Assembly (NCBI GenBank): GCA_039636795.1
Contig: CP143430.1
Coordinates: forward strand, 1,488,001 to 1,552,000
Direction: 5' to 3'
Source of the DNA: Micrococcaceae bacterium Sec5.1
GTDB lineage: Bacteria; Actinomycetota; Actinomycetes; Actinomycetales; Micrococcaceae
Length of the DNA stretch: 64,000 nucleotides
The position numbers and the translations under genes are program-made. Shown here piece after piece: positions 21,666-57,963 of this stretch. The notes under the pieces are model-generated. The model saw only the letters and a program-made list of their open reading frames with translations, had not been told where the DNA came from and searched no databases. Position 1 is the first letter of the stretch. Each line of letters starts with the position of its first letter.

Positions 21666-21700
21666 GGCGCATACGGCCGGAATCGGCCAGGAGTGTGGAC

Positions 21701-24685
21701 ATGGCTGACACTCTGCTTCAAACGGATCAGGAAGCCAAGCCCGGTGATGTGGAAAGGCTGTCGGGACGGAGAAACAAAAGAGGTGAAAACAGCAAAGTAG
21801 GGGAGAATAGCGTCTTCCTGGCCATGTCGGCCGGTGTAGTGGGTGCAGTCAGTTACGCCTGCAGTTTACTCATGGCCAACATGCTGCCGACCATCGACTA
21901 CACGCATTTTGCGTCGGCCGCGATGCTGATGGGAATCGTGGGGATTGTCGCATCAGCGTTGGTACCTCTTCCCTTGTCCCATGTAGTCGCTGTCAATCCT
22001 GAAGGCTCCAAGGAACGCAAGGATGGCCTGGCCTTCTCGGTTTTTGTGTCATGCCTGGCGGGAGCAGCGGCAGCCGTAGTGACAGGAATGGTGACTCTGG
22101 CCTTTGCCACTCCAGCGCTGGCAGGAGCTGTAGCGCTGGGTTCGCTGGCTATCTTCATCGTGACGGCACCCTCGGGCTGGTTGCAGGGTGAATTGCGTTT
22201 CACTTGGGTTGCCCTGATTAACATCGGCGAAGTTGTCCTCAGGCTCGGGTTCAGTGTGTTGGTGATCTTCCTGGCATGGGGTGCCGGGGGAGCGGTCCTC
22301 GGATTTGCTGTGGGTTCAGTAGCTCCACTTGCCGTGCCACTTTCCTTCTATCGGGACCTGCATTGGCGTCCGCGTGTGCTTCTGGACAAATGGCGGTGGG
22401 CGGAGACCATCGAGATCGCGTCGGTGCTGTGCGTAGTTTCGGTACTGGTTGGCCTGGATGTTGTGCTGGTTGGATTTCTGGACGAAGGATCCTCCGCTGC
22501 AGCCGGATTCCAAGCTTTGGCGTCAATTGCCAAGGGGCCGGTGTATGTGGCGGCCGGTACTGCCTTGGTGGTTTTCCCTTTGCTACGCACCCCAGGCGCG
22601 GACGTGCGCAAGGTCCTTGGAGCCGCCTTCACCTCCTTTGGGCAATTGGCGGTAGTGGCCTTCGTCATTATCGCGACGGCACCGCACGCGCTGGCCGGGT
22701 TGATTGTGCCCCAGAAGTATCACGGCTCCCTGGAGCTGCTGCCATGGTTGGCAGTAGCTGGCCTTGGCTACGCGATGCTGATGGTACTGTCCACCATCCT
22801 TCTCGCGGTGAGGGCGTACCGGCGATGCCAGGTAGGCCTTGCCATCGCTTGCCTTCTGGTGGTGGGTGGGTTGTGGGCTGGCTGGTGTCTGAATGCTGTT
22901 GCCGGCATGGCAGTGGGCTCAGCGGCGGGTTCCGTGCTGGCATCCGTGGTTCTGGCCCTTATAGCTCGTCCCGTTCTTGCCGCCGCCAAGCGTCCCGGAG
23001 GCGTGGCCTGGCGGTGGTTTGCCTACCCAGCCGGACTGGCTGTCGTGCTGGGCGTGGCCAGCCAGTTTCAACCATTGCTGTGGCTGCTCCTGGCGTCCGG
23101 CGCAGGCTCTGCCATACTGGCACATCAGCGCGGTCTGTTGCCCGGCTGGAGCAAAGTTGCGCGGCGTGTTCAGAGACTCACGGGCATCTGGATGCCGTTC
23201 TTCGCCGTTGTTGCCGGAGCCTTCTGCGTTCGTGCCCTTGGTCTTGAACGGGGCTTCGAGCTCTGGGTGGATGAGTTGCTGTACGTGCGTTTAGGCGAGT
23301 CTGTCAGTACAGGCCACTTTCCCACGCTCCCTGACGGGCCCTTCTTCCTCCACCCGCCCGGCTATTTCATCCTTGAAGCCGGCATCATCAGGCTGTTTAA
23401 CGTCTCTGGTGAAATTGTGGATGTCGTACTGCAGTTGCGATGGCTCAACGCCGCGCTCGGAGCACTGACAGTGGGTTTGGGGTTCCTCCTTGTCAAAAGG
23501 CTCACCAGTGCCGCGCCCGCGTGGCTCTGCGCTGTGCTACTTGCGTTCGAGCCTTTCATTCTGCGCAACAACAGCCATGCCTTCCTCGAGACCTCGGCCA
23601 TGGCGGCTGTGCTTGCAGGGTTTTTGATATTGCTGCGAACGCCGAAGCGGGCAAAGGAAGCTGTCCCTTTCCTGCGATTGGCTGTAGCGGGATTGCTTCT
23701 GGGATACGGAGTTCTGTGCAAGGACTTCTTCATCATCTGCACCTTCGTTCCGGTGCTGGTTGCTGTGTTGTGGAAGCAGACCCTGCCCTGGCGAAAAGCT
23801 GCGGTGGTGGCGGCGGTGGCTGCCATTCCCTATGCCGCTTACCTCGCGGTGGTAGCGCTGCGGGGACAAATGCCGGATTGGGTGTGGGCCAAAAGCAATG
23901 GGCTGCTTCGGATGTCCGGGGTTGAGAAGAACACGGGTTTCACGGCGGAAGGCTCGCCGAGCATCGTGTCCCGGTTGATCGAGCAGAGCGGTCACTTTGG
24001 CACCAGTTATATTCTCCTGGCGCTGTGTCCCGTAGTGGGCCTCCTCTTGTGCTTCAGCCTTCATGCAGGGCGGCGGTTTGTTGGACTGGCGGGGCTGGCT
24101 CTGGGTGTCGCGGGCGCCTACAGCGCCATCTTCGGCACCTTCGAAGAGCAATATGGGTATGGCGTCATCGTGGCAGGGGTCCTGTGCTCCGTGCTGGCCG
24201 TGGTGGAGCTCATTGAGAGATATCCGAAGGGTCGAAGGGCCTTCGCGGCGATGTCCATCTGCTTCATTGCCTTGACCGTGCTTCTCGGGATGCGCACGGC
24301 ACTCACTGTGGACAATGGCTTTGCCAGTGCGAGGCAGTGGGTCACAGCGAACCTGCCCGCTGATGCGCGCGTCAGCGTCACCAACAGCACCGGGGAGTTG
24401 GTATTCAGGGACGACGCCAGGTTCGGAATCTGGCCATCAGCACCCTTGATGAAAGAGCATGGCGTCAATTACATCCTGACCCAGTCGCTGCCCATCAGCC
24501 AGGGATACGGCTACGCGAATCCCACGATGCTCGCCTGGCTAAAGGAGCACGCAACTCCTGTTTTCACTTCCGAGGGACCCACCAATGGTGATACGACGCT
24601 CTGGTTCGTGCGGGAAGCGGATCTGGACGTTGCGGCATCGGCGAATATCGGGTTCCCGTCCAAAGACCATGGCACAGAACGGTAA
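21701..24685 (+). CDS. Fusion of Wzx/MATE-like flippase and GT39-type membrane glycosyltransferase
   Basis: About 994 residues (GTG 21695 possible, ATG 21701 preferred). Residues 30-470 hold about 12-14 helices of an oligosaccharide flippase type (SYACSLLMANMLPTIDY, FASAAMLMGIVGIVASALVP). From about 490 on, a second multi-helix module begins. ERGFELWVDELLYVRLGES supplies the acidic pair and FFLHPPGYFILEAG the loop of GT-C enzymes that use polyprenyl-phosphate sugars (GT39/ArnT type). The C-terminus has a soluble VTNSTGELVFRDDARFGIWP part. One chain would thus move a lipid-linked glycan out and glycosylate on the outer face; that coupling is inference. Neighbouring GT2 could supply its donor. 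Confidence 0.85.
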   Translation: MADTLLQTDQEAKPGDVERLSGRRNKRGENSKVGENSVFLAMSAGVVGAVSYACSLLMANMLPTIDYTHFASAAMLMGIVGIVASALVPLPLSHVVAVNPEGSKERKDGLAFSVFVSCLAGAAAAVVTGMVTLAFATPALAGAVALGSLAIFIVTAPSGWLQGELRFTWVALINIGEVVLRLGFSVLVIFLAWGAGGAVLGFAVGSVAPLAVPLSFYRDLHWRPRVLLDKWRWAETIEIASVLCVVSVLVGLDVVLVGFLDEGSSAAAGFQALASIAKGPVYVAAGTALVVFPLLRTPGADVRKVLGAAFTSFGQLAVVAFVIIATAPHALAGLIVPQKYHGSLELLPWLAVAGLGYAMLMVLSTILLAVRAYRRCQVGLAIACLLVVGGLWAGWCLNAVAGMAVGSAAGSVLASVVLALIARPVLAAAKRPGGVAWRWFAYPAGLAVVLGVASQFQPLLWLLLASGAGSAILAHQRGLLPGWSKVARRVQRLTGIWMPFFAVVAGAFCVRALGLERGFELWVDELLYVRLGESVSTGHFPTLPDGPFFLHPPGYFILEAGIIRLFNVSGEIVDVVLQLRWLNAALGALTVGLGFLLVKRLTSAAPAWLCAVLLAFEPFILRNNSHAFLETSAMAAVLAGFLILLRTPKRAKEAVPFLRLAVAGLLLGYGVLCKDFFIICTFVPVLVAVLWKQTLPWRKAAVVAAVAAIPYAAYLAVVALRGQMPDWVWAKSNGLLRMSGVEKNTGFTAEGSPSIVSRLIEQSGHFGTSYILLALCPVVGLLLCFSLHAGRRFVGLAGLALGVAGAYSAIFGTFEEQYGYGVIVAGVLCSVLAVVELIERYPKGRRAFAAMSICFIALTVLLGMRTALTVDNGFASARQWVTANLPADARVSVTNSTGELVFRDDARFGIWPSAPLMKEHGVNYILTQSLPISQGYGYANPTMLAWLKEHATPVFTSEGPTNGDTTLWFVREADLDVAASANIGFPSKDHGTER

Positions 24686-28782: not shown

Positions 28783-28818
28783 GATCACAGCGGAGTTAGC
28801 GATCACAGTGGAGTTCAG
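28783..28818. repeat. 18-bp tandem duplication overlapping the patatin stop codon
   Basis: Unit 1 GATCACAGCGGAGTTAGC (28783-28800) is followed at once by unit 2 GATCACAGTGGAGTTCAG (28801-28818), 14 of 18 identical. The minus-strand stop of the patatin gene (28817-28815) lies in unit 2, and the TGA trinucleotide recurs in frame downstream. Confidence 0.85.
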
Positions 28819-30164
28819 TACCGTGCGAGCAACTCCCGAAAACCGTTGGCGGCGAAGCTGGCCACGGCCTCTGCCCGGTCAACGAAGCCATGGGCACCCA
28901 CTGGCTCCACCGAGGCCAGAAGTCCCGCGGCGTCGGCCAGGCTCATGGTCAGGCTTCCCGCCGGCAACCCGTCCACTTGCAATACTGCCTGGCGCGAGTC
29001 GGTCCAGGCATCCGGACCGGGATCGTCCCGCAAGGTGCGGGTCAGGGACACGTCCTGCCACCCGCCGTCGAGCCTGATCCGGGCACGGTACGTGACGTCG
29101 TGGCCTTCCGTTTCAACGCGCCCATCCGAGAAAAAGACGCGACCGTCGAAGAGCGGGTGCTCCAGGAATCCCGTGAACTGTGGGGGCACAGTGGACCCGG
29201 CCGTGGGCAGCATGACGGTGGCCTTGAACGTCAGGGGTGAGCCGTCCAAGTCTCCGCGCAAAGTGTCGTTGAAACGGACGCCGGCAGCCGGTTCTGTCAT
29301 GGCGGTGCAATTGGCGTCCTTTGGAACGCCGGCTGGCGTCATGGTATCCAGGTACGCCCGGGCGTCCCGGTATCCCATGCCGATCAGGGTATCGGCGTCG
29401 ATCCTTCCCAGATAGAACTCGGGATCGAGCGGGAGCGGATGCTCAGGACGCACCACATGCAGCACAAACTCGCGTCCAGCCGCGCTCGCAGCCTCGAAAT
29501 CAGCAAGGAGGGCTCCCATGGCGCTCATTTCGATCATGTGCACGTACTGCTCCAAGGGCCCGTCACCCCAATAGGGCGAGTTGCCGATGCACCAAATCAG
29601 CCATACTTCCTCCGCTCCCCGACGCAGGGCTTCGGCTACATTGGCGTCGCGCATCCAGACGGCGTCCGTCCAGATCTTCCCGTCCCGGCGCAGCGGTGTC
29701 AGGAAGATGGGCAGAGACATTCCCGCGGCCATAAGCTCCGCGTCGATGGCGGTGGCATCGATGGCGTGGCAGCGCTTTTCAGTGAATTCCACGACGTTGA
29801 AGGAACCTTCGACGGCGCCCGGTTCCGCCGCGCGGCCCCGGATAGTCGCATCATTAATCCCGAGTGCGGGAAAGACCTTGTTCAGGATCCCGTCCGCATC
29901 CCCAATAGCTGGCAGCGCCCACGGGCCCTTGAGGTAGTCACCGATCGGCAGCGCCGAGCCGAAGTCCTTCACGTTCACGCTGGACCAGCGGGTGCACATT
30001 TCTTCCGGCGACACCCCGGACAGCAGCATCCCCGCCGTCAGGATCCCGCCGGAGCTGCCGTCAACATGGTGAAACTCCAGGCCTTCCTCGGCGAGCGCAC
30101 GCATGACGCCGGCCTGCCAGGCCACGCGCATTCCGCCGCCGGCGAGCACCAGTGACCTTTTCAC
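28815..30164 (-). CDS. Patatin-like phospholipase with C-terminal accessory domain
   Basis: 449 residues from GTG 30164, which has GGAGG 9 nt upstream and overlaps the preceding stop as GTGA. The patatin domain covers residues 1 to about 280: oxyanion loop LVLAGGGMRVAWQAG, nucleophile Ser38 in VDGSSGGIL, and catalytic Asp in KIWTDAVWMRDANVAEAL (DAV in place of the usual DGG). Residues from about 293 form a beta-rich domain that resembles the C-terminal region of the GMC enzyme at the head of the operon. Likely a lipid acyl-hydrolase; the substrate is unknown. Confidence 0.85.
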   Translation of the reverse strand: MKRSLVLAGGGMRVAWQAGVMRALAEEGLEFHHVDGSSGGILTAGMLLSGVSPEEMCTRWSSVNVKDFGSALPIGDYLKGPWALPAIGDADGILNKVFPALGINDATIRGRAAEPGAVEGSFNVVEFTEKRCHAIDATAIDAELMAAGMSLPIFLTPLRRDGKIWTDAVWMRDANVAEALRRGAEEVWLIWCIGNSPYWGDGPLEQYVHMIEMSAMGALLADFEAASAAGREFVLHVVRPEHPLPLDPEFYLGRIDADTLIGMGYRDARAYLDTMTPAGVPKDANCTAMTEPAAGVRFNDTLRGDLDGSPLTFKATVMLPTAGSTVPPQFTGFLEHPLFDGRVFFSDGRVETEGHDVTYRARIRLDGGWQDVSLTRTLRDDPGPDAWTDSRQAVLQVDGLPAGSLTMSLADAAGLLASVEPVGAHGFVDRAEAVASFAANGFRELLARY

Positions 30165-30643
30165 AGCGCGCTTCCTCCGGTCATGCCCCCACTGATCCTG
30201 CGCCAATAGACGAACAGGAGTACCGCCGTCGCGAGGTCAAAGAAGGCCACCAGCAGCGCGATGGGTGAGAAGACGCCGTTCAGTACCCCGATTCCGACGG
30301 CGCCGAATGCGCCGGCTTTCTGCAGTCCGGACCAGAGCACCACCTCGGGGGAGGGTGCGGCGTTGAGCAGGGTGTGGAGGAGCAGTCCGCCAACCACCAC
30401 CATGAACATGCCCACTGTGCCGAACAGTTGCCGCATTCCAGGGGTGGGGTCGGCGCCGATCAAGGGCAATATTTGTCCGCCAAACGGGACCTGCACGGCA
30501 CCGGTCAGGACCGTGATGATGGCGATCGCTGCGAGGATGGCGCGCAGTGGATCGGCGGTGGCCCAGGCCAGCAAGCCGGGGCGTCGCGCTTGGTGGTGAG
30601 GCTGGGAGTGGGGTGTGGGTTGTGCCGGCTGATGGGCGGTCAT
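30161..30643 (-). CDS. Four-helix membrane protein B of the GMC-patatin operon
   Basis: 160 residues from ATG 30643. After a polar His/Pro/Gln-rich N-terminus, four hydrophobic helices follow: about 35-55 (AILAAIAIITVLTGAVQVPF), 73-93, 108-130 and 136-152 (LATAVLLFVYWRR). No family is recognised with confidence. Its start overlaps the stop of membrane protein A (ATGA), and its stop overlaps the patatin start (GTGA). Confidence 0.75.
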   Translation of the reverse strand: MTAHQPAQPTPHSQPHHQARRPGLLAWATADPLRAILAAIAIITVLTGAVQVPFGGQILPLIGADPTPGMRQLFGTVGMFMVVVGGLLLHTLLNAAPSPEVVLWSGLQKAGAFGAVGIGVLNGVFSPIALLVAFFDLATAVLLFVYWRRISGGMTGGSAL

Positions 30644-31122
30644 GCGAAGGACTCCAGCAGGCGTCCGCGGTCCACGAGCAGCCACACCATGGAGGCCCAG
30701 GTCAGCGTGGAGACGTAGAAGCGGATGTCGTTGAGCATCATCCAGCGCTTCAGCAGGGTGCGGAGTTCGGCGTCGTCCGCGAAGTCGCCGCCGCGGATGC
30801 GCTTGTTGATGGGGATGATGATGCCTTGGCCCACCCAGGTCAGGACGATGATTCCCAGCAGGCAGATGATGGCTGGGATGACACGGATGGTGCCCCACTC
30901 GGACCAGACCAGGATGCCGCCTGAAATGAACATAATGGGCACCACGACCGTGAAGAACTTGGTTGCTGCGCGCGTGGGGATGCCGAAGTGCATGTCGACG
31001 TTCTCACGGGCCAGCGAGCGCCATGTGGGGTACAGGAAGAATTTGAGGACCCACATGGTGCCCACATACATCGTGGCGCCGAACAGGAAGTAGAGCGCGT
31101 TGATGAGCAGTAGCCAGTTCAT
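30640..31122 (-). CDS. Four-helix membrane protein A of the GMC-patatin operon
   Basis: 160 residues from ATG 31122 (MNWLLLINALYFLFGATMYV). Four helices: residues 2-32, about 56-75 (FFTVVVPIMFISGGILVWS), 81-105 and 134-152. The loop IPINKRIRGGDFADDAELRTLLKRWMML is hydrophilic. It may belong to the broad group of small integral-membrane DUFs with four helices (DUF1772/DUF2269-like), but I cannot place it. It overlaps both neighbours by 4 nt. Confidence 0.75.
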   Translation of the reverse strand: MNWLLLINALYFLFGATMYVGTMWVLKFFLYPTWRSLARENVDMHFGIPTRAATKFFTVVVPIMFISGGILVWSEWGTIRVIPAIICLLGIIVLTWVGQGIIIPINKRIRGGDFADDAELRTLLKRWMMLNDIRFYVSTLTWASMVWLLVDRGRLLESFA

Positions 31123-32120
31123 TGGAGGCTTCCCGGAGTAGCGCGGGGTACGGCGCCGGAGTCTCGTGCCGTGCCCATTGGCGCCGTCCCTGCGATCCTG
31201 CTCCGGTCCGGCGGGGTCAGCCATTCCTGGCCCTGGCCCAGGTTCACGACGCTGTCCAGCATGTCGCCTCCTCGAAGGGCTGCAGCAGCGGATTCGGTAG
31301 GTGCCGTGAGGAACCAGGCTTCGTAATGATCGTCAAGAACACCGTGGGCTTGCGGCAGCCAGGCGGTGAACACGGGTTTGCTTTCCACCTGCAGATTCTT
31401 CAAAGGCTCGACGCCGGGCGCGTCACCGAGGATGAGGCGTGCCTTGGCCTGTGCTCCGAGTGTGATGTCTCCGGTAGCTTCGAAGTAGATGTCCGATTTC
31501 CAGAGCATGTTCCGGAATACGCAGTAGTTCGACGCAGCAAGCTTCAGTGGCAGCCCAAGTGGGTCGGGACGCTCGATTTCGATGTAGCAACCGAGTTGGC
31601 CATCTTTGTCGTACTGTGCTGACACTGTGGAGTCAGTGACGACGAAGTCCAGGTTGGCCTGGTGCTTCGGCATGCCCCAGATTCCCTTGCCACCCTTGAC
31701 GGAAACCTCCGAACTGACGGGCAGGTCCACCACGAACTGCCCCAGCTTGAAGGTTTTCTGGAAGATCAGCGGGAGGATGGGCGGGGCCGGCCTGCTGCCG
31801 TGGGTGATGGCGATGGCCAGTGAGTATTCGATGTACTTGCCGATGTCCGTGGACTTGTAATTGACCACGGTGACCACCAGCAGCCCTTTGCCGCCCAGGC
31901 TGAAGGGCCTCATCTCGGTGCCGGGGAGTGCGGCCGCTGCGGCTTTCTTGTTGATGGGGAAGGCCGCCATGAGCACCGGGGAGTCGTCGGAATTGACCGG
32001 CATGACGTACTTGATGCCGTCGGCCAGTGCGTGCTGGCCGCGGAGGCGTTCCTGGCGTCGGGGAACCGGGGACGGCATGAGCTTGAGCAGGGGGGTAACC
32101 AGTTCGGTGAGTGTTTTCAT
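31119..32120 (-). CDS. Acetoacetate decarboxylase-like protein
   Basis: 333 residues from ATG 32120, overlapping the hydrolase stop (ATGA). The central segment GGKGIWGMPKHQANLDF contains the GxPK motif of the ADC superfamily, with Lys152 at the position of the Schiff-base lysine. YIEYSLAIAI and LQVESKPVFTAWLPQ match the beta-cone fold. The classic glutamates were not verified. Family members act as decarboxylases, aldolase/dehydratases or unknown enzymes; here it probably acts on a product of the oxidoreductase/hydrolase pair upstream. Confidence 0.8.
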   Translation of the reverse strand: MKTLTELVTPLLKLMPSPVPRRQERLRGQHALADGIKYVMPVNSDDSPVLMAAFPINKKAAAAALPGTEMRPFSLGGKGLLVVTVVNYKSTDIGKYIEYSLAIAITHGSRPAPPILPLIFQKTFKLGQFVVDLPVSSEVSVKGGKGIWGMPKHQANLDFVVTDSTVSAQYDKDGQLGCYIEIERPDPLGLPLKLAASNYCVFRNMLWKSDIYFEATGDITLGAQAKARLILGDAPGVEPLKNLQVESKPVFTAWLPQAHGVLDDHYEAWFLTAPTESAAAALRGGDMLDSVVNLGQGQEWLTPPDRSRIAGTAPMGTARDSGAVPRATPGSLQ

Positions 32121-33172
32121 GACCTTGGCTCCTTGGTTTTGTTGAGCTCCTCCACGATGATCGGGAAGGTGTCCTGCCAGGCATGCTGACCGAAGAAGAC
32201 GTCCAGATGTCCGTAGCCGGGGATGAGGTGGAGCGAGTCCTTCCCGGGCCGGTGCTTTTGGAAGAAGTCGAAGGTGCGTTGCTGGCTTTCGGGAAGGAAA
32301 CAGAGGTTGTCCAGCCCGGCGATGAACGCGAACCGCGCATCGGTTTGGGGAGCCTCGGCCACAAAGTTCTCCGGCAGTTCCGGATGGTTTCCGGCAGCTA
32401 CCATGTGCCCGGCTTTGATGCTGCGGCCCATCTCCTCGAAGAACGTCACCGGGACCTCGGCGAACTCGCCGCTGAGCCATTGATGAGTGGCGTCGTCGAG
32501 GTTTTCGTGGGCCCAGAGCGCCGGGCGGCCGCTGCCGTAGGTGAAGCTGACCATCTTGCAGACGATGTTGTCGCACTCGCGGTGGGTGGCCTTGACGAGG
32601 CCTCGGATGGCCCGCGTGAAGTAGCCCTGCGATTTATAGCCCCATGCCGGGGACAGGTAAGGGGTGAAGATCTTGACCACGGGCGTCAGGTAGTCGATCT
32701 TGAGCCGCGAGAACGCAGGCACCACGGGATGCAGGGACACCGCGTTGGAGACGATGGTGTCCACTTGGGGCAGGAGACCGGCCACGGCGGACATGGTGAA
32801 CGACGTCGATCCCTGGCAGTGGATGACAGCCTTCATCGTGTCCGCTCCAGTCGCATTCAGCACATGCTCGACGGCGGCAGGGTGGTCGTACACGGCGGCG
32901 TCGGCGAGCGTCCAGGACAAGGGATCGAGATCGATGGATGCCCTCCAGTTCAGCATCCACACGTCCCATCCGTCTCCCAACAGGACGTCCACAATGGTGG
33001 TCCGGACCGGTGGCCTGAACAACTCCGCCCGCACGCCGGACCCATGGACCAGCATGACCGGCCCTTTCGTCACCTCCACCGCCGACGTCACATGGACAAG
33101 GCTCAAAGGGGTGTTGTCCCGGGCACGGAACGGGATGACCTCGGTCCGGTGCTCGGCACGGGTGATGATCAT
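32117..33172 (-). CDS. Alpha/beta hydrolase with cysteine nucleophile
   Basis: 351 residues. Oxyanion region VMLVHGSGVRAELF, nucleophile elbow AVIHCQGSTS in which Cys119 takes the place of the usual Ser in GxSxG, candidate acid Asp in FIAGLDNLCFLP, and catalytic His in LIPGYGHLDVFFG. Cys nucleophiles with a GxCxG-like box are known from PHA synthases and dienelactone hydrolase. Alpha/beta hydrolases of this type are also found next to cholesterol-oxidase-like GMC enzymes. Overlaps both neighbours by 4 nt, so tight coupling with the oxidoreductase pathway is likely. Confidence 0.85.
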   Translation of the reverse strand: MIITRAEHRTEVIPFRARDNTPLSLVHVTSAVEVTKGPVMLVHGSGVRAELFRPPVRTTIVDVLLGDGWDVWMLNWRASIDLDPLSWTLADAAVYDHPAAVEHVLNATGADTMKAVIHCQGSTSFTMSAVAGLLPQVDTIVSNAVSLHPVVPAFSRLKIDYLTPVVKIFTPYLSPAWGYKSQGYFTRAIRGLVKATHRECDNIVCKMVSFTYGSGRPALWAHENLDDATHQWLSGEFAEVPVTFFEEMGRSIKAGHMVAAGNHPELPENFVAEAPQTDARFAFIAGLDNLCFLPESQQRTFDFFQKHRPGKDSLHLIPGYGHLDVFFGQHAWQDTFPIIVEELNKTKEPRS

Positions 33173-35190
33173 GGTGCGGTTCCTTTCCGCGTGATGGTGA
33201 TGGGTTCTTCAAGCAGCCGTACGCCGGGCAGGCCGGGTTCCGGGACCAGCCGCGCGCCGTCGTCGTTCTGTACCAGCTGCCAATCGCGGCAGACTGTGTC
33301 CACCACAAGCGGGTAGACAGTGAGGTTGCCGTCAGCGGCGAGGTGGAGGCGGAGGAATCCTTTATGGTCTTCGATGGATTGCCCGGACATTTTCCAGGTA
33401 GAGACTTCACCGGTTGGCGTCGCCAGGATGAACAGCGCGAAGGCCTCACTGCCAAGCGCCCAGCCACCCAGATACACCACCGCGAGCGCCAGCAGCAGAA
33501 TCACGACGTCGGGCCAGCCGGCCGGCCAGGGAAGCAGGATCACGACGGCGGCACTCACCGCAAGGGCGGACAGCTGGTAGAGCGCGCCGCGGGTGAAGAC
33601 CACGATTCCTGCCTTCGCCAGCCCAAGCAGCCGTGCCGCTAGTGAGAGGACTGCGAGCAGGAGTGGCATCGCAAGGATCAAGATGACGATGAGGAGCAGG
33701 GTGTTTCCGTGGGTCAGGCTGCGGAGGCTGTCCACGAACGATTCCCCGCGGAATGCGCTGAAGACTGTCCAGAGCGTTAGTGCAGCGATGACGTGGACAA
33801 TGCCCAGGGACAAACCGAAGCCAGGGTTGCGGATGGGAAGCCAGTATTGCGAGAAGGGGTTCGCAAGCCTCGGACCGAGCAACTGGGAGTCGGCCTGATC
33901 CGGGTAGAGGGTGGGCATGCGGGTGAAGTGCCGGGTAGGTGCTTCTTCGTGGTCGCCGTGAGGGTTTCCGGCTTGGGTGACGCTGGAGGACATGCCCGGT
34001 GCGTTTTCGTGGCAGGGAAGGGTGAGGTGTTCCGGGAGCCAATGGGCATCTGAAAGGTAGGCGCCGCCCAGGCCGCAGGTGATCATTTGCGTTCTCGTTG
34101 AGTCCGGTGGGAGGTTTTGGGCGCCCGGTCTGTCAGGGCCCGGTTCCTCCGTCGGCGTTCGTTCCTCGTAGCGGGAATAGTGGTGCAGGTCGCCGGTGAG
34201 CCACAGCCGGACGTTTGCGCCCGTGGCCTCGAACAGGCCGGTCTCGGGATTGAACCGACGACGAAGGTAGTCCTGCTCAAAAAAGTTGACCTGCCTGAAC
34301 TCGTTCGGCCCCGGGTGCTCGGCGTCAACCCAAAAGGGAGCCGCCACGCACAGGATGATGGCGTCCCCTGGTTGGAGTTGGAGCGTGACGTTCCGGTAGA
34401 AGTAATCCAGTTGTGGTTCGTCGATGTACTGTCCCAGCTGGCTGTCCAGGCCCAGGAGCCACCAGCCCGGCGTACCGTCCTGTGATCCATCGGGACCCTG
34501 GGTGCCCGATTGTCCGGTGAGTCGGACCGCGAAGTAGCTGCGCGTCTGGATGGTCCGCCAGCCCCCGATGCTTCGTTGCCGGGTGAACATCCGGATGAAC
34601 GAGGTCAGGCCGTCGTACCAGTCGTGGTTGCCGGGGAGTGCGAGCATGATGGGTGTGGGATTGTGCTTGGTGGGCAGCGCCATCCGGTATGGTCCTGCCA
34701 TCCGGTTCTCGTAGGCAGCCGGTGAGGCGACGGGGTAGACCTCATCACCCCCGAGGACCAGCACGCTTCCGCGGGGGAGCTCATGGCCCTGAACGGTTAC
34801 CTTGTCCTGGGCGAGCAGCATTGCGACGGAGTAGGTCGCGTCGAAGCCGTCGCCAAGATCTGCGGTGTAATCGAGCCACAGATCAGCGGGGCTCAAGGGC
34901 TCGTCGGGCTTTGTGGTGCGGGATGCCTCAAGCTCTCCGGGGGTTGGAAGCCCGCGGCTCGTGACCGGCGGCTGGGCTGGTTGGCCGGGGACCGGGAGTT
35001 TATCCAGGCGCAATTGATCGGCAGGGAAGCTCCCCTCGAGTTCCCTCTTGTCACCGAAGTCCGCGAACACAGTAGCCGCCATGACTTTCAATGCCGTCCG
35101 TGCCAGCGACATCGGCGAGAGCCAGCGAACCGCTGCCTGGGGAGTGAAGCCCAGGACAGTACGGTGCTTCGCAAGCTCCCAGCTCTTCAT
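33169..35190 (-). CDS. Membrane-anchored calcineurin-like metallophosphoesterase
   Basis: 673 residues from ATG 35190 (MKSWELAKHRTVLGF), which overlaps the GMC stop as ATGA. The soluble part (about residues 75-410) has ADLGDGFDATYSVAM where a DxH motif would be, then VLVLGGDEVYP, LALPGNHDWYDG and LTGDLHHYSRYE, the metal-binding motifs of the family. From about 425 to 580 it has five or six hydrophobic helices, then a soluble tail. The missing first His and the membrane tail make it unusual. Substrate unknown; a lipid phosphate is plausible. Confidence 0.82.
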   Translation of the reverse strand: MKSWELAKHRTVLGFTPQAAVRWLSPMSLARTALKVMAATVFADFGDKRELEGSFPADQLRLDKLPVPGQPAQPPVTSRGLPTPGELEASRTTKPDEPLSPADLWLDYTADLGDGFDATYSVAMLLAQDKVTVQGHELPRGSVLVLGGDEVYPVASPAAYENRMAGPYRMALPTKHNPTPIMLALPGNHDWYDGLTSFIRMFTRQRSIGGWRTIQTRSYFAVRLTGQSGTQGPDGSQDGTPGWWLLGLDSQLGQYIDEPQLDYFYRNVTLQLQPGDAIILCVAAPFWVDAEHPGPNEFRQVNFFEQDYLRRRFNPETGLFEATGANVRLWLTGDLHHYSRYEERTPTEEPGPDRPGAQNLPPDSTRTQMITCGLGGAYLSDAHWLPEHLTLPCHENAPGMSSSVTQAGNPHGDHEEAPTRHFTRMPTLYPDQADSQLLGPRLANPFSQYWLPIRNPGFGLSLGIVHVIAALTLWTVFSAFRGESFVDSLRSLTHGNTLLLIVILILAMPLLLAVLSLAARLLGLAKAGIVVFTRGALYQLSALAVSAAVVILLPWPAGWPDVVILLLALAVVYLGGWALGSEAFALFILATPTGEVSTWKMSGQSIEDHKGFLRLHLAADGNLTVYPLVVDTVCRDWQLVQNDDGARLVPEPGLPGVRLLEEPITITRKGTAP

Positions 35191-37913
35191 CTGCGTGGCC
35201 GTCGCAGTGGTCTCCGGACCGGGAACGGGACCCGTTTGAGGCCCCGCCCGTAGACCTCCCACAACTCACCGGCGAACAATTTCATGAAGGACGCCAAACC
35301 CGCGGCCGGTGCCGGGCCCTCGGCACGGAACGTGGTCAGTTGCTTGGCGAAGTCCAAGGGGCGGATGTACAGAATGCCGGCACCGAAGACATCCTCCTGG
35401 CCTGGCTCCTGCCCGCCTGGCTCATCAACGTCAACTGCTTCCGACGGCGGAACATGGCCTCGCAGGATCGTGGCGTACAGCGTGGTCGTGTCCTGCCAAA
35501 TATCCAGCCCGGCCTCGTTATGGATCAGCTTGTACCCGGTGAACGTGAACGGCGTTCCGCCCGGGTCCCGCAGCCACAACCGGTAGAGCATGCGCCTGGC
35601 TGGCCTGCCGTCGTCGGAAACGTCCTCCACAAAGAGATTGAACCAGCCACGCTCCACCGGCATCCGGCCACCGAAATAGTCTGCGAGGACATACCCCTCG
35701 GCCTTCGCCGGGTGGCTCGGATCCTCAACGAACGCGTCCATGTCCTCGGCAGTAATCGTCAGCTCGAACATGATCCCGCGGCCCCGGTCCCTGCCCAGGC
35801 TTCGACCCTTCTCCGGATCACTGAGACCGGGACTGAACCAGCCGTGCATCTGCTCGGTGAAACGCACCGAGGTGGTGGCGTCTGTCGCAGCGGCTTCCGC
35901 GTCCAGGGTTGCCTGGTCCGGGTGTGACTGCAGCCCCAAACCACGAGTCCCTGCACCCGTCGTGGCAGGTGCGCCCTCGGTGGCGGCGCTCGCAGGCCGC
36001 TCCTCCCGCGCGCCCTTGCCCTTGGTAGCGTCAGGCGCCAATTCGCGCGGAGCCGAAGCGTCGAGGTCGTTGGCCCGGCTGTCAGCGCCAGCCGAGTCAT
36101 CACTGGCCAGGTCGTCACTTCCAGCAGCGTCGGCGGGGGTAATTCCCCTGTGCCCGGCACCCTGGGCGTTCTCCAGGATGTGGTGGCACGCGCGTTCGGC
36201 AAAAGCGGAAATGGTCAGCGAAGGGTTGGCACCCACGGGGCCAGACATGGCTGCCCCATCCATCACGAACAGGCCGGGATAACCGAACACCTCGCCGTAG
36301 GAGTCGCACACCGCCTCGCCAGGGTGGCGGCCCGATGGTGCCCCGCCGATGGGGTGCACCGTGATGACACGTTTGGCCCACCACAGCGGGTTGTCTACGA
36401 AATCTCCGTCGAGGTCCTTGGCGATCTCGGACATTGTTCCGCGGACGCGTCCGAAGTAGTCCTTGGACGTGGCCATGGTCCATGCAATGGCGAGTCTTCC
36501 GTCGCGAAGGGTCATGACGCCGTCGGGGATGTCCCGGCCCATTCCCAGCAGCGGCACGGAACTGGAGGAGAGGCGCCCGTCACCCAGTGCGGCGGCGAGG
36601 TCGGCGGAGACGTTCGAGCGGCCGGCGTCGAACAGCCTGTCCATCAGCAGTTGGCGGGCAACTTTGGCCGTTCGTTTGACGGTGGTGCTGAGTTGGGCGG
36701 TCTCCATGAGCCAGTTCATGAAGGCGGGATACCCGGCGTCCTCCACGTAGTAGCCGCGACCATCGCCGTCGTCGTCGTTGGAATCGGGGATCCTGATCGC
36801 GGTGGTGATGACGGGTCCGCGGCTGCCGGTGAGTGTTCGCACTCCGGGTGGGGATCCGTTGGCGGCCGGTGTCTTGGCGTCCATGACGAACGTGAGGAGA
36901 TCGCCGTTGCCGCTGAAGCGGGTGCCTAAGGCGTCGCTGAGGGCGGGCAGGGAGCTTCGGTTGCGCAGGAGCAGGAAGTTGGTGCCGAACGTGCCGGCGC
37001 CGAGGATGAGGCGGCGGCAGTGAATGATCCGCTCTTTCAGGAGTTCGCCTTGGCGCTCGGGATCGTGCACCACGTAACGGACCTCGTAGCCTCCCCTCGC
37101 AAGTGGCCTGATCCCGCGGACATCGTGGAATGTGCGGATGTCCGCGCCCTTGGCAGCCGCTGCGGAGATGTAGTTGTGGTCCAGCGTGTTCTTGGCGCCC
37201 GCGTTGCAGCCGATGTCGCATTCACCGCTGAGGGTACAGGTGGTCCGCACAGTGTCAGGGCCGTGGATGCTGCCGTAGTCGGGGAGGGGGAGCGGCCTGT
37301 TGGTTTGGGGATCTTTCTTAGGATCCGTGGAGAACGTGACGGCGATGGGCGGCCTGCTGATGGGCAGCCGCAGCGTTGCAGCCGTCTTCTCCATGGCCAT
37401 GGTTTTCGGCGTGTCGTTGTACGGATAACGGACCGGTTTGAGCATGCCTTCTGCGGTTTTGTAGTACGGGTCAAGGTCCGCCCGTGTGAAAGGCCAATTC
37501 TCGTAACCGCCGCCGGGGATGGGGGATTCGTTGACGAACCATTTTTCGTCCTTGCGCAGGAGGACGTTGGCATAGATCAGTGAACCGCCGCCCAGGCCGC
37601 TGGATACCAACCCCTCCGTGCCCCGGAATGTCCACGCATCGAAGAGCCCGTACAGTCCGCGATCCGGGTCCCAGAAATTCCTGCCCATCTCGGCTGGCGA
37701 ACGCGCGAAACTACCTGGAGGATAGGGCTTGCCACGTTCCATGAGCACCACGGATTGTCCGGCCTCGGCCAAGCGGAGGGCAGCCACCGAACCGCCGAAT
37801 CCGGAACCGACCACTACGGCGTCAACTTTTTCGATGCCTGGACTGTGGCGCGCCGGATCGGGCGCCGGTTCCGCACCAGTATTCCCGCTGTTCCCGGTCC
37901 CCAGACGACCCAT
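35187..37913 (-). CDS. GMC-family FAD oxidoreductase (cholesterol-oxidase-like) with C-terminal accessory domain
   Basis: 908 residues, much longer than a plain GMC enzyme. FAD-binding VVVGSGFGGSVAALRLAE (Gly36-x-Gly38-x2-Gly41), GLVSSGLGGGSLIYANVL, and a C-terminal GMC block with HPIGGAPSGR near 521 and GPVGANPSLTISAFAERA. A low-complexity Ala/Asp/Ser linker (about 590-660) leads to a beta-rich domain (about 680-830) with GWFSPGL, ADYFGGRMPVERGWFNLFVED and FTGYKLIHNEAG. The enzyme would oxidise an alcohol, perhaps a sterol or other lipid. First gene of the seven-gene operon; AGAGGA precedes the ATG. Confidence 0.87.
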   Translation of the reverse strand: MGRLGTGNSGNTGAEPAPDPARHSPGIEKVDAVVVGSGFGGSVAALRLAEAGQSVVLMERGKPYPPGSFARSPAEMGRNFWDPDRGLYGLFDAWTFRGTEGLVSSGLGGGSLIYANVLLRKDEKWFVNESPIPGGGYENWPFTRADLDPYYKTAEGMLKPVRYPYNDTPKTMAMEKTAATLRLPISRPPIAVTFSTDPKKDPQTNRPLPLPDYGSIHGPDTVRTTCTLSGECDIGCNAGAKNTLDHNYISAAAAKGADIRTFHDVRGIRPLARGGYEVRYVVHDPERQGELLKERIIHCRRLILGAGTFGTNFLLLRNRSSLPALSDALGTRFSGNGDLLTFVMDAKTPAANGSPPGVRTLTGSRGPVITTAIRIPDSNDDDGDGRGYYVEDAGYPAFMNWLMETAQLSTTVKRTAKVARQLLMDRLFDAGRSNVSADLAAALGDGRLSSSSVPLLGMGRDIPDGVMTLRDGRLAIAWTMATSKDYFGRVRGTMSEIAKDLDGDFVDNPLWWAKRVITVHPIGGAPSGRHPGEAVCDSYGEVFGYPGLFVMDGAAMSGPVGANPSLTISAFAERACHHILENAQGAGHRGITPADAAGSDDLASDDSAGADSRANDLDASAPRELAPDATKGKGAREERPASAATEGAPATTGAGTRGLGLQSHPDQATLDAEAAATDATTSVRFTEQMHGWFSPGLSDPEKGRSLGRDRGRGIMFELTITAEDMDAFVEDPSHPAKAEGYVLADYFGGRMPVERGWFNLFVEDVSDDGRPARRMLYRLWLRDPGGTPFTFTGYKLIHNEAGLDIWQDTTTLYATILRGHVPPSEAVDVDEPGGQEPGQEDVFGAGILYIRPLDFAKQLTTFRAEGPAPAAGLASFMKLFAGELWEVYGRGLKRVPFPVRRPLRRPRR

Positions 37914-38062
37914 GGCCGTTCCTCTCAGAGGAAAGCTGACCTGAAGGCAGCCCCGGCGTGACCGGGCGATGCCTCCGGACTATCGCCCTTATGTTCCCAC
38001 CGGGCCGGGGATCTGTCCATGAGGTGGAGTTATCCCGTTGATCCGGCTTGACTGGTTGGATG

Positions 38063-38488
38063 TCACGCGATGTTCCGTGTGTACACGAGGTCGAAGTCGT
38101 GCTCAAGCGGTCCGCCTGGGTAGGTTCCCCGCTCCCATCGGCCCGTGATGGTGTTCCCGTCCTCGCTGATGCGTCCGATGTAGCGTTGCGGCCAATCGGG
38201 TCCATCCCGGAAAAGGGTCCACACGTTCTCTTCCAGGGTCATGTCCAGGATGCGGGCGACGCCCCGGGAATCGAAGTAATGCTGCTGAAGTGCGCCGTCG
38301 GATCCAGTAGCGCCGATGGTGCAAATAGCATTCGGGAATTCCGGCCTCTCAACAGTGGAGCGCTGGATGAGGAATCCGCCACCGTGCAGCCATTCGAACG
38401 TTGTCCGACCCACCGCGTCCATGCCGGGGGCAGTGGTCTCCCATTGGCCGACCAGGATGTTGAGTCGCTCTATCAGCACGGATGTCAT
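38063..38488 (-). CDS. DUF1579/lipocalin-like small protein
   Basis: 141 residues: LNILVGQWETTAPGM entry, GGFLIQRSTVERPEFP, ALQQHYFDSRGVARIL, WTLFRDGPDWPQRYIGRISEDG and ITGRWERG. These are the strand motifs of DUF1579-type beta-barrel proteins, thought to bind small lipophilic ligands. No function is known. Divergent from the reductase-like gene at 38590, with about 100 nt of shared upstream DNA. Confidence 0.75.
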   Translation of the reverse strand: MTSVLIERLNILVGQWETTAPGMDAVGRTTFEWLHGGGFLIQRSTVERPEFPNAICTIGATGSDGALQQHYFDSRGVARILDMTLEENVWTLFRDGPDWPQRYIGRISEDGNTITGRWERGTYPGGPLEHDFDLVYTRNIA

Positions 38489-56400: not shown

Positions 56401-57963
56401 TCAGGCAGCAGCCGCTTGGAAGTGCTTCTCGATGAGCCCCTTGATGTCCTCGTGGCATCCGCCGCACCCTGTTCCGGCACGGGTGGCCTTGGAGACCTCG
56501 CCAACAGTGCTGCAACCTTCCAATACGGAGTCCTCAATGCTTGCCGCGCTGACGCCTGCACAGCGGCAGACTGTGCGTTGGGGATCGTTGCTGGTAGCGC
56601 CGGAATCCAACTGGTCCGGGCCGTCCAGGCGAAGCAGCAAGGAACGGTCCGCGGGCAACTCCGAGGAACGTTCGAAAAGGACCACGAGTTCAGCAGCAGT
56701 CCTGGGCATGCCTACAGCCACCAAACCCTCCAGCACTCCGCCGCGCGTTGTCATCTTGACGTAGCGGCCGTGCTCGGGATCGGCCCACTGGGAGATCTGG
56801 CGGCGTGCCCGGCCAGCAGTGGCCCCGGCTTCCAGAAGCTCTTCGTCCCAGGGATCGGCTTGGTTGTCGCCGGCAACGGCCAGGTTGATGCCCCGTGCTT
56901 TCAGGACCACGACACCGGGCTTTTCCGTGGGCAGGGCTTCCAGCGCATCCGCGGCTTCCTGGCCGTCCCGTGCCAGGACCACCAAATATTCAGCCAGCCA
57001 TTCGGCCTGACGCCAGCCGGGGCCTACCAAGCCGGAGGGGGCGGTGGCGGTCCGGCAATCGAGGCAGGAAGCGTCAGGGCAGCGAACCTCGGCACAATCG
57101 CCGATCGCGAACATGTGTGGCTCGTGGTACGTCCGGAGATGGTGGTCCACCAGTATTCCGGCCGCAACAGGAAGGCCACAGCCTTCGGCCAGCTCGATCC
57201 TCGGGCGAACGCCGCAGGACAGGACCAGCAGGTCGCCGTCGATCGCCGATCCGTCCTCCAGCAGGAGAGCAGAGAAAGATCCGCCGGGACCAGCGGTTTC
57301 CACGCCAGTAGACCTCGCGTTGCCGGCCATTCGGACGCCGCCCGCACGGAGGCTGCTCGTCAGAACGGATCCGCTGCCGCGGTCAATGCTGCGCCCCAAG
57401 GGGAAGGGTCCGTTGTGTACCACCGTTGCCTGGGCGCCTTCCTCCGCGGCGGCGAGGGCGGTTTCCAGGCCAAGCACGCCACCGCCCAGGACCACCACGC
57501 GTTTGCCGCCGGCTACGGCTTCACGGAGCACGGCAGCATCGCGAAGATCGCGCAGGGCGGTGACTCCGGCCGGGAGAACGGGGCCCGCCGGATCAGGGTT
57601 CAAGCCGGTGAGATTGGGGATGACCGGCCGGGAGCCGGTGGCAAACACCAAGCGGTCGTAGTGTTCGTTGGTGCCGTCGGAGAGAATCACGTGCTGGCGT
57701 GCGCGGTCAATCCTCTTGACCTTGACACCCAACCGGACGTCGACGCCGTCGGCCTCCAGTTCAGCAGCATCAGCCATGGCCAAAGCTTCAGGAGTGGTCC
57801 GTCCGACGCCCAGTTCTGCAACCATGACGCGGTTGTAGGCGGCCTCAGCTTCCTGGCCGACCACCAGCAGTTGCACGAGTCCTGTGCGGACCGCGGGAAG
57901 CAGTTCGTCCACCAGTCGCGCAGCCACCGGGCCGAATCCAACAACAACAATGCGCTCGCTCAT
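56401..57963 (-). CDS. NAD(P)H-FAD/[2Fe-2S] electron-transfer subunit of assimilatory nitrate reductase
   Basis: 520 residues from ATG 57963 (MSERIVVVGFGPVAARLVDE), with AAGGAGG upstream. FAD and NAD Rossmann motifs (VVVLGGGVLGLETALAAAEE) and a FAIGDCAEV flavin motif, as in NirB's N-half. A C-terminal BFD-type [2Fe-2S] domain follows: RTVCRCAGVSAAS and GTGCGGCHEDIKGL with the CxC and CxxC pairs. It likely passes NAD(P)H electrons to the adjacent nitrate reductase (NasB-like). ATGA overlap with that gene. Confidence 0.85.
   Translation of the reverse strand: MSERIVVVGFGPVAARLVDELLPAVRTGLVQLLVVGQEAEAAYNRVMVAELGVGRTTPEALAMADAAELEADGVDVRLGVKVKRIDRARQHVILSDGTNEHYDRLVFATGSRPVIPNLTGLNPDPAGPVLPAGVTALRDLRDAAVLREAVAGGKRVVVLGGGVLGLETALAAAEEGAQATVVHNGPFPLGRSIDRGSGSVLTSSLRAGGVRMAGNARSTGVETAGPGGSFSALLLEDGSAIDGDLLVLSCGVRPRIELAEGCGLPVAAGILVDHHLRTYHEPHMFAIGDCAEVRCPDASCLDCRTATAPSGLVGPGWRQAEWLAEYLVVLARDGQEAADALEALPTEKPGVVVLKARGINLAVAGDNQADPWDEELLEAGATAGRARRQISQWADPEHGRYVKMTTRGGVLEGLVAVGMPRTAAELVVLFERSSELPADRSLLLRLDGPDQLDSGATSNDPQRTVCRCAGVSAASIEDSVLEGCSTVGEVSKATRAGTGCGGCHEDIKGLIEKHFQAAAA

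What the first reader, a model, noticed from the sequence alone, without database searches (positions are those of the whole stretch)
28815..37913. Seven-gene operon with all six junctions as 4-nt overlaps: candidate undescribed lipid-oxidation/hydrolysis system
Seen: GMC oxidoreductase, membrane metallophosphoesterase, Cys-nucleophile hydrolase, ADC-like protein, two four-helix membrane proteins and patatin run 37913 to 28815 with ATGA (five junctions) or GTGA overlaps (last). Such tight coupling implies stoichiometric products of one pathway or complex. Known: GMC, patatin and ADC-like families act on alcohols, acyl esters and beta-keto acids. Inference: a membrane-associated pathway that oxidises and deacylates a lipid or sterol and processes a keto-acid product.
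Basis: partly seen in the sequence, partly recalled or inferred. Interest (0 to 1): 0.82.

Follow-up and report, generated by a model that had tools for sequence, protein, structure and literature searches.

The report
Widespread unstudied seven-gene lipid-processing operon
A tightly packed set of seven bacterial genes, kept together in several phyla but apparently never studied, looks like a membrane-surface pathway that splits and oxidises an unknown lipid-like molecule.

Summary
Seven minus-strand genes (37913 to 28815) have six consecutive 4-nt overlaps; background is 29 of 165 same-strand junctions, longest run three. In 31 relatives with the full set, 166 of 186 junctions keep the overlap.

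The set is old and modular. The order ABH-ADC-TMa-TMb-PAT recurs in Actinomycetota, Myxococcota, Acidobacteriota, Rhodothermota and Bacteroidota loci; GMC and MPE lie before, after or are missing. An eighth module without a real Pfam match, a predicted eight-stranded barrel, is fused to GMC, patatin or ABH, or stands alone. Elsewhere GMC, barrel and ABH form one protein of about 1140 residues.

GMC has a C-x5-C-x3-C set in 68 of 68, spaced like the 3Fe-4S ligands of FAD glucose dehydrogenase, so a dehydrogenase is likelier than a sterol oxidase. ABH has an acid-lipase-like fold and invariant Cys, Asn and His.

Best reading: a cytoplasmic-face pathway that cleaves, oxidises, decarboxylates and dephosphorylates a hydrophobic substrate, the barrel acting as carrier. 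Substrate unknown; hopanoid and PHA markers are absent from the window's genome. The enzyme families are known; seven paper searches found no report of the system.

The parts
35187..37913 (-). Gene 1, P0001: GMC flavoprotein (about 1-600) with C-terminal barrel domain
   Evidence: Pfam GMC_oxred_C 46.5 bits (cut-off 24.6), GMC_oxred_N 18.5 (cut-off 23); profile closest to cholesterol oxidases among solved structures, E 4.8e-56; active-site His and Asn columns (H520, N563) 68/68
37206..37238 (-). Cys cluster C226-x5-C232-x3-C236, candidate Fe-S ligands
   Evidence: three Cys 68 of 68, a fourth at +3 in 43 of 68 (here Ser); same spacing as 3Fe-4S ligands C212, C218, C222 of B. cepacia FAD-GDH (PMC6719666, passages)
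35229..35873 (-). Accessory barrel domain ('acc'), first copy, fused to GMC
   Evidence: in 26 members only two single-member Pfam matches at E 0.029 and 0.095; AF2 of a stand-alone relative (L081): 8 strands, pLDDT 93.4, pTM 0.89
33169..35190 (-). Gene 2, P0002: metallophosphoesterase domain plus C-terminal membrane helices
   Evidence: Pfam Metallophos 14.7 bits, below cut-off 21.5; GD149, GNHD187-190, GD334-x-H336 invariant 19/19; hydrophobic segments between 462 and 580
32117..33172 (-). Gene 3, P0003: alpha/beta hydrolase, Cys119 and His322 with Asn289 at the acid position
31119..32120 (-). Gene 4, P0004: acetoacetate-decarboxylase-like protein
   Evidence: Pfam ADC 57.3 bits, cut-off 29.8; PK motif 67/67; K152, E98 invariant 22/22
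30640..31122 (-). Gene 5, P0005 (TMa): small membrane protein, Anthrone_oxy-like
   Evidence: Pfam Anthrone_oxy 26.2 bits, cut-off 27.3; 12 of 15 members match at E<=1
30161..30643 (-). Gene 6, P0006 (TMb): small membrane protein, no family
   Evidence: no Pfam match for P0006 itself; DUF6069 in 2 of 16 members, best E 0.0036
28815..30164 (-). Gene 7, P0007: patatin domain with C-terminal barrel domain
   Evidence: Pfam Patatin 91.4 bits, cut-off 27.7; S38 and D167 invariant 17/17
28818..29294 (-). Accessory barrel domain, second copy, fused to patatin
   Evidence: aligned with the other copies in A3, 21% identity to L081; in L022 the patatin C-terminus matches P0001 663-890, 24.9% identity, E 1e-10
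37914..38062 (-). Upstream intergenic stretch, presumed promoter region
   Evidence: 149 bp between gene 1 and the ORF at 38063-38488; no sigma-70-type match found

Best explanation
It is a co-translated, ancient and modular operon for the stepwise conversion of a hydrophobic acylated substrate at the cytoplasmic face of the membrane. Proposed order (inferred): the Cys hydrolase (P0003) and the patatin (P0007) cut or move ester-bound acyl groups; the GMC protein (P0001) oxidises an exposed hydroxyl with FAD and passes the electrons through an Fe-S cluster to the membrane, perhaps to the small membrane proteins P0005/P0006; the ADC-like protein (P0004) acts through a Schiff base on the resulting beta-keto acid; the membrane phosphoesterase (P0002) removes a phosphate. 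The barrel domain, present on both GMC and patatin here, is proposed to hold or hand over the lipid. Shown: gene order, overlaps, fusions, conservation of candidate catalytic residues. Inferred: Fe-S cluster, carrier role, order of steps, cytoplasmic side, lipid nature of the substrate. Not known: the substrate.
For: Full set in order in 31 of 82 loci, permuted sets in Myxococcota and in L171; 166 of 186 overlaps kept. Single open frames GMC=acc, PAT=acc, acc=ABH, TMb=PAT and GMC=acc=ABH. In an Actinomycetota sample 18 of 396 genomes carry acc, and 15 of the 17 regions then fetched contain GMC, ABH or PAT. Candidate catalytic residues conserved. ABH model closest to acid lipases; GMC profile closest to cholesterol oxidase but with the FAD-GDH Cys spacing. 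No hydrophobic segment in P0001, P0003, P0004, P0007. Neighbour families that recur lie at scattered distances or only in close relatives.
Confidence: 0.5

Rival explanations
1. Catabolic operon for an external sterol, steryl ester or other triterpenoid: ester cleavage by P0003, oxidation by P0001. (A special case of the general reading; the odds overlap.)
Against: P0001 scores 195 bits against the cholesterol oxidase model's cut-off of 850; it has a Cys cluster that cholesterol oxidase lacks; no hydrophobic signal-like segment; no ring-degradation genes were recognised among recurring neighbours (clusters read by eye).
Confidence: 0.15
2. Biosynthesis of a lipid or polyketide-like product: P0003 works as a Cys acyltransferase (PHA-synthase-like), not as a hydrolase.
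Against: No synthase, ligase or carrier protein in the set; a patatin and a phosphoesterase point to breakdown; PhaC_N in only 1 of 10 genomes examined and not in G000.
Confidence: 0.2
3. Membrane-lipid repair or turnover: removal of oxidised or damaged phospholipid species. (Also a special case of the general reading.)
For: Patatin, phosphoesterase and membrane proteins in one set; by record titles spread over unrelated, mostly environmental bacteria.
Against: Patchy: 5 of 198 genomes of the order; no stress regulator was recognised next to it (ORFs that look by eye like sigma factors occur in 4 loci at several kb).
Confidence: 0.15
4. Hopanoid or polyhydroxyalkanoate metabolism.
For: Bulky hydroxylated or hydroxyacyl lipids would suit GMC, ABH and ADC.
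Against: Squalene-hopene cyclase N-domain in 3 of 10 and PhaC_N in 1 of 10 carrier genomes, neither in G000.
Confidence: 0.04

Closest known systems
Class I cholesterol oxidase (GMC; 1b4v, 1coy)
   Same: GMC sequence profile match; active-site His and Asn aligned
   Different: Cys cluster absent in cholesterol oxidase; here a C-terminal barrel, no signal-like segment, operon-encoded; far below the NCBIfam cut-off
FAD glucose dehydrogenase with 3Fe-4S cluster (6a2u; PMC6719666)
   Same: C-x5-C-x3-C spacing in a GMC protein; profile match E 4.4e-26
   Different: no match to a hitchhiker or cytochrome subunit among the seven proteins; closer to cholesterol oxidase overall
Acid lipases (gastric, lysosomal acid lipase) and PHA synthase PhaC
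   Different: Cys instead of the lipase Ser (Ser recalled); invariant Asn where PhaC has Asp447; elbow is I-H-C-Q-G, without the first Gly
Acetoacetate decarboxylase family (3c8w, PF06314)
   Same: Pfam match above cut-off; GG-x-x-IWG-x-PK block aligned with 3c8w
   Different: second Lys of the PKK motif is His; match to the solved member is weak (E 0.8)
Patatin-like phospholipases
   Same: Pfam above cut-off; Ser-Asp pair invariant
   Different: C-terminal barrel shared with the GMC protein; TMb-patatin open frames in three myxobacterial loci

Membership tests
Cholesterol oxidase (class I) | score above the curated NCBIfam cut-off (CholsOxChoxAB, 850 bits) | tested here: not met
   195.2 bits
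Cholesterol oxidase (class I) | active-site His and Asn | tested here: met
   aligned with 1b4v; 68 of 68; their catalytic role is recalled
Cholesterol oxidase (class I) | oxidises sterols with O2 | not testable with these tools
   needs an enzyme assay
3Fe-4S FAD dehydrogenase (BcGDH type) | three Cys ligands with spacing x5, x3 | tested here: met
   68 of 68 against C212/C218/C222; a residue-level alignment to 6a2u was not obtained (one search failed)
3Fe-4S FAD dehydrogenase (BcGDH type) | hitchhiker and cytochrome subunits beside it | tested here: not met
   no such Pfam match among the seven proteins or eight other window proteins
PHA synthase | Cys-His-Asp triad and G-x-C-x-G box | tested here: not met
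   Asn 81/81 at the acid position; box reads I-H-C-Q-G; defining residues
PHA synthase | curated model TIGR01836 (cut-off 365.3 bits) | tested here: not met
   18.3 bits
Acid lipase fold | overall fold with cap | tested here: met
Acetoacetate decarboxylase family PF06314 | gathering score and catalytic Lys | tested here: met
   57.3 against 29.8 bits; PK 67/67; that this Lys forms the Schiff base is recalled
Patatin PF01734 | gathering score and Ser-Asp dyad | tested here: met
   91.4 against 27.7 bits; S38 and D167 17/17
Calcineurin-like phosphoesterase PF00149 | gathering score | tested here: inconclusive
   14.7 against 21.5 bits; metal-type motifs 19/19
Anthrone_oxy PF08592 | gathering score | tested here: inconclusive
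   26.2 against 27.3 bits
Lipocalin/avidin-like barrels | fold match clearly above unrelated barrels | tested here: inconclusive

The most novel reading that the evidence does not exclude
An undescribed, ancient lipid-processing machine: an iron-sulfur GMC dehydrogenase, a Cys-His-Asn acid-lipase-fold enzyme, a patatin, a Schiff-base decarboxylase-like protein and a membrane phosphoesterase share a new barrel domain that hands a lipid from one active site to the next, feeding electrons to the membrane through two small membrane proteins. It would be a pathway for a lipid class not now known to be degraded or made this way.
Probability: 0.3. Interest if true: 0.8.

Novelty: new variant of a known kind. 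Interest (0 to 1): 0.62.

Why it matters
A set this strongly coupled in several phyla, with a domain lacking a Pfam model and two unusual active-site arrangements, points to a real and general pathway whose members are annotated only as separate enzymes in the records seen here. It gives a defined knock-out and lipidomics target in soil bacteria, and a natural GMC-barrel-hydrolase fusion of about 1140 residues that can be expressed as one protein.

Tried and rejected
Defence system: no PADLOC match for any of the seven proteins. Phage origin: of five proteins scanned (P0001, P0002, P0005, P0006, P0007) only P0001 gave one marginal phrog of unknown function. Hopanoid or PHA metabolism as the general role: markers in 3 of 10 and 1 of 10 carrier genomes, none in G000.

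Extra partner genes: clustering of neighbour ORFs in 58 of the 82 loci gave families of up to 10 loci, but at scattered distances, and part of the clusters were antisense ORFs; an adjacent gene recurred only in close relatives (for example beside ABH in the related MAGs L071 and L076). Ten flanking proteins from eight loci were scanned: four had no Pfam family and the rest differed, one being an AMP-binding enzyme on the other strand in L107 and one a PhoD-like phosphatase directly after ADC in L083, where no MPE was detected.

Co-inheritance: pairwise distances of the seven proteins correlate at 0.82-0.93, 0 of 200 permutations as high, but no housekeeping control was run, so this is not counted as evidence. 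Recent transfer between phyla: the ABH tree needs 7 phylum changes where 6 is the minimum, so no clear sign. A residue-level alignment to FAD-GDH was tried with a sub-fragment and failed. Foldseek found no match for the barrel at E<=0.001; avidin-like, designed and outer-membrane barrels are not told apart. An internal terminator or promoter: 0 promoter-like and 5 terminator-like matches, no more than in shuffles (1.2 and 6.6).

Literature: seven searches of the open PMC library with combinations of the family names returned zero papers. One search returned 16 papers, the ten listed being on GMC enzymes; one search found nothing on ADC residues; one search listed six lipase and PHA synthase papers. 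Subscription papers and bioRxiv were not searchable. Of papers, passages of PMC6719666 and PMC5509742 were seen; the rest only as listings.

Rows dropped before a count: only the 31 full-order loci were used; L032-L045, L047-L052 and L055-L058 were left out as near relatives; from then on domains of 0.6 of the median length or less were left out, and the tree also left out L022 and L024. Of the 23 acc places, 18 lie in the 17 regions; the other five (G000, G009, G140) had been seen before.

Full report
Observation. The window lies at 1488001-1552000 of a 5.43 Mb single-contig genome whose nearest listed relative for P0003 is Arthrobacter sp. NtRootA1 (98% identity). Seven minus-strand genes run from 37913 to 28815. 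Their junctions read ATGA five times and GTGA once. With a simple codon-usage gene caller, 29 of 165 same-strand junctions in 20 stretches of 20 kb from the same genome are 4-nt overlaps and the longest run is three; the window's run is six. The caller is crude, so the 17.6% is approximate.

Conservation. A pattern scan of the species-genome collection with the hydrolase alignment gave 184 confirmed relatives, of which the best 80 were kept. Adding L022 and L024, 82 loci were annotated with iterated profiles of the seven families. 31 of 82 hold the complete order GMC, MPE, ABH, ADC, TMa, TMb, PAT, all in Actinomycetota. In eleven only GMC=acc and ABH were found, in six GMC=acc MPE ABH ADC; many others are cut by contig ends or lack members (Sinomonas L046 shows no MPE). 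Myxococcota L094, L109 and L090 have ABH, ADC, TMa, TMb, PAT, then GMC, MPE. L104 (Rhodothermota), L107 (Acidobacteriota) and L091 (a Bacteroidota MAG) keep ABH-ADC-TMa-TMb-PAT. L171 has MPE first. Of seven Pseudomonadota loci, six keep ABH-ADC, one (L105) shows no ADC, and none shows TMa or TMb. In the 31 complete loci, 166 of 186 junctions are 4-nt overlaps: 21, 30, 31, 30, 27 and 27 of 31.

Result against strict linkage. The first search, with the phosphoesterase, found matches in 15 of 296 Actinomycetota genomes. Around four full-length relatives (L023, L025, L026, L027) no other family of the set was found. Two of these genomes, G100 and G140, carry parts of the set elsewhere (L166; L024). 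MPE is thus the loosest member.

Distribution. By record title the 80 ABH loci fall in seven phyla (61 Actinomycetota, 7 Pseudomonadota, 5 Acidobacteriota, 4 Myxococcota, one each of Nitrospirota, Bacteroidota, Rhodothermota), several of them MAGs. The tree needs 7 phylum changes against a minimum of 6. The set is rare and patchy: 5 of 198 genomes of the window's order have the hydrolase at E<=1e-20.

A shared eighth module. The C-terminal parts of the GMC protein and of the patatin are homologous: the L022 patatin matches P0001 663-890 at 24.9% identity, E 1e-10. This 'acc' domain has no real Pfam match. It is fused to GMC, to PAT, to ABH (L083, L086, L095) or stands alone (L081, L082, L088, L099, L112). 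In Leptospira, Azospirillum, Bernardetia and Rhizobium plasmid records, GMC, acc and ABH form one polypeptide of about 1120-1170 residues, and in Azospirillum an MPE gene stands directly before it. Nitrosomonas aestuarii and G690 have an ABH-ADC-PAT=acc locus and, elsewhere, a 1142-residue GMC=acc=ABH protein. In a sample of Actinomycetota 18 of 396 genomes have acc; of 17 regions fetched around such places, 15 contain GMC, ABH or PAT, the exceptions being a contig end (L170) and a 52-residue fragment (L177). In a sample of 200 genomes of the phylum of G583, 3 have acc, G583 included.

GMC protein. Its profile is closest to cholesterol oxidase (E 4.8e-56) and next to FAD glucose dehydrogenase (E about 4e-26). 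The His and Asn of the active site are in 68 of 68. Three Cys with spacing x5, x3 are in 68 of 68, a fourth in 43 of 68, and the three are also kept in the more distant rows of A10 (24 of 24); the cholesterol oxidase rows shown have none there. In B. cepacia FAD-GDH the 3Fe-4S ligands are Cys212, Cys218 and Cys222 (passages of PMC6719666), the same spacing. I infer an Fe-S flavodehydrogenase.

Other members. ADC-like: PK motif 67 of 67, Glu98 22 of 22, aligned with 3c8w, though that match is weak, E 0.8. Patatin: Ser38 and Asp167 17 of 17; a loose serine-elbow pattern in 52 of 53, the exception being L066, whose PAT is split. MPE: metal-type motifs 19 of 19. TMa: Anthrone_oxy-like, below cut-off. 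TMb: no family. P0001, P0003, P0004 and P0007 show no hydrophobic segment.

Mechanism. Best reading: ester cleavage or transfer, hydroxyl oxidation with electron delivery to the membrane, Schiff-base chemistry on a keto acid, and dephosphorylation, with the barrel as carrier. The carrier role and the order are conjecture. Hopanoid and PHA markers are missing from the window's genome, so these are not the general substrate.

Novelty. No paper on the cluster turned up in the seven searches listed under Tried and rejected. The component families are known. The barrel, the Cys-Asn-His arrangement and the Fe-S-type cholesterol-oxidase-like protein were not searched for in print on their own, so their novelty is open.

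Noticed in passing
L083:11979-13460: In a Rubrobacteraceae MAG a PhoD-like phosphatase follows ADC directly where no MPE was found, a possible replacement by an unrelated phosphatase.
   Followed up: partly
L188, L194: Nitrosomonas aestuarii and G690 carry both an ABH-ADC-PAT=acc locus and a separate GMC=acc=ABH fusion protein.
   Followed up: partly
L114:7366-9035: Rhodococcus plasmid: a weak acc relative and an ABH relative beside a type I PKS, a thioester reductase protein and ccrA.
   Followed up: no
L112:5387-9032: Pseudonocardia plasmid: GMC and acc on one strand, ABH divergent, next to a SARP-type regulator.
   Followed up: no
L023, L025, L026, L027: Relatives of the phosphoesterase P0002 that stand without the other six families.
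   Followed up: partly
L168:7870-10221: The GMC gene beside acc lies in two open frames in this genome.
   Followed up: no
window 21695-24685: A 996-aa open frame with no Pfam match at E<=1e-5.
   Followed up: no
window 57960-60203: Molybdopterin oxidoreductase of 747 aa; no link to the finding seen.
   Followed up: no
L095:141-5974: Thermoleophilaceae MAG: a second, distant GMC and ADC pair plus an MPE on the other strand.
   Followed up: no
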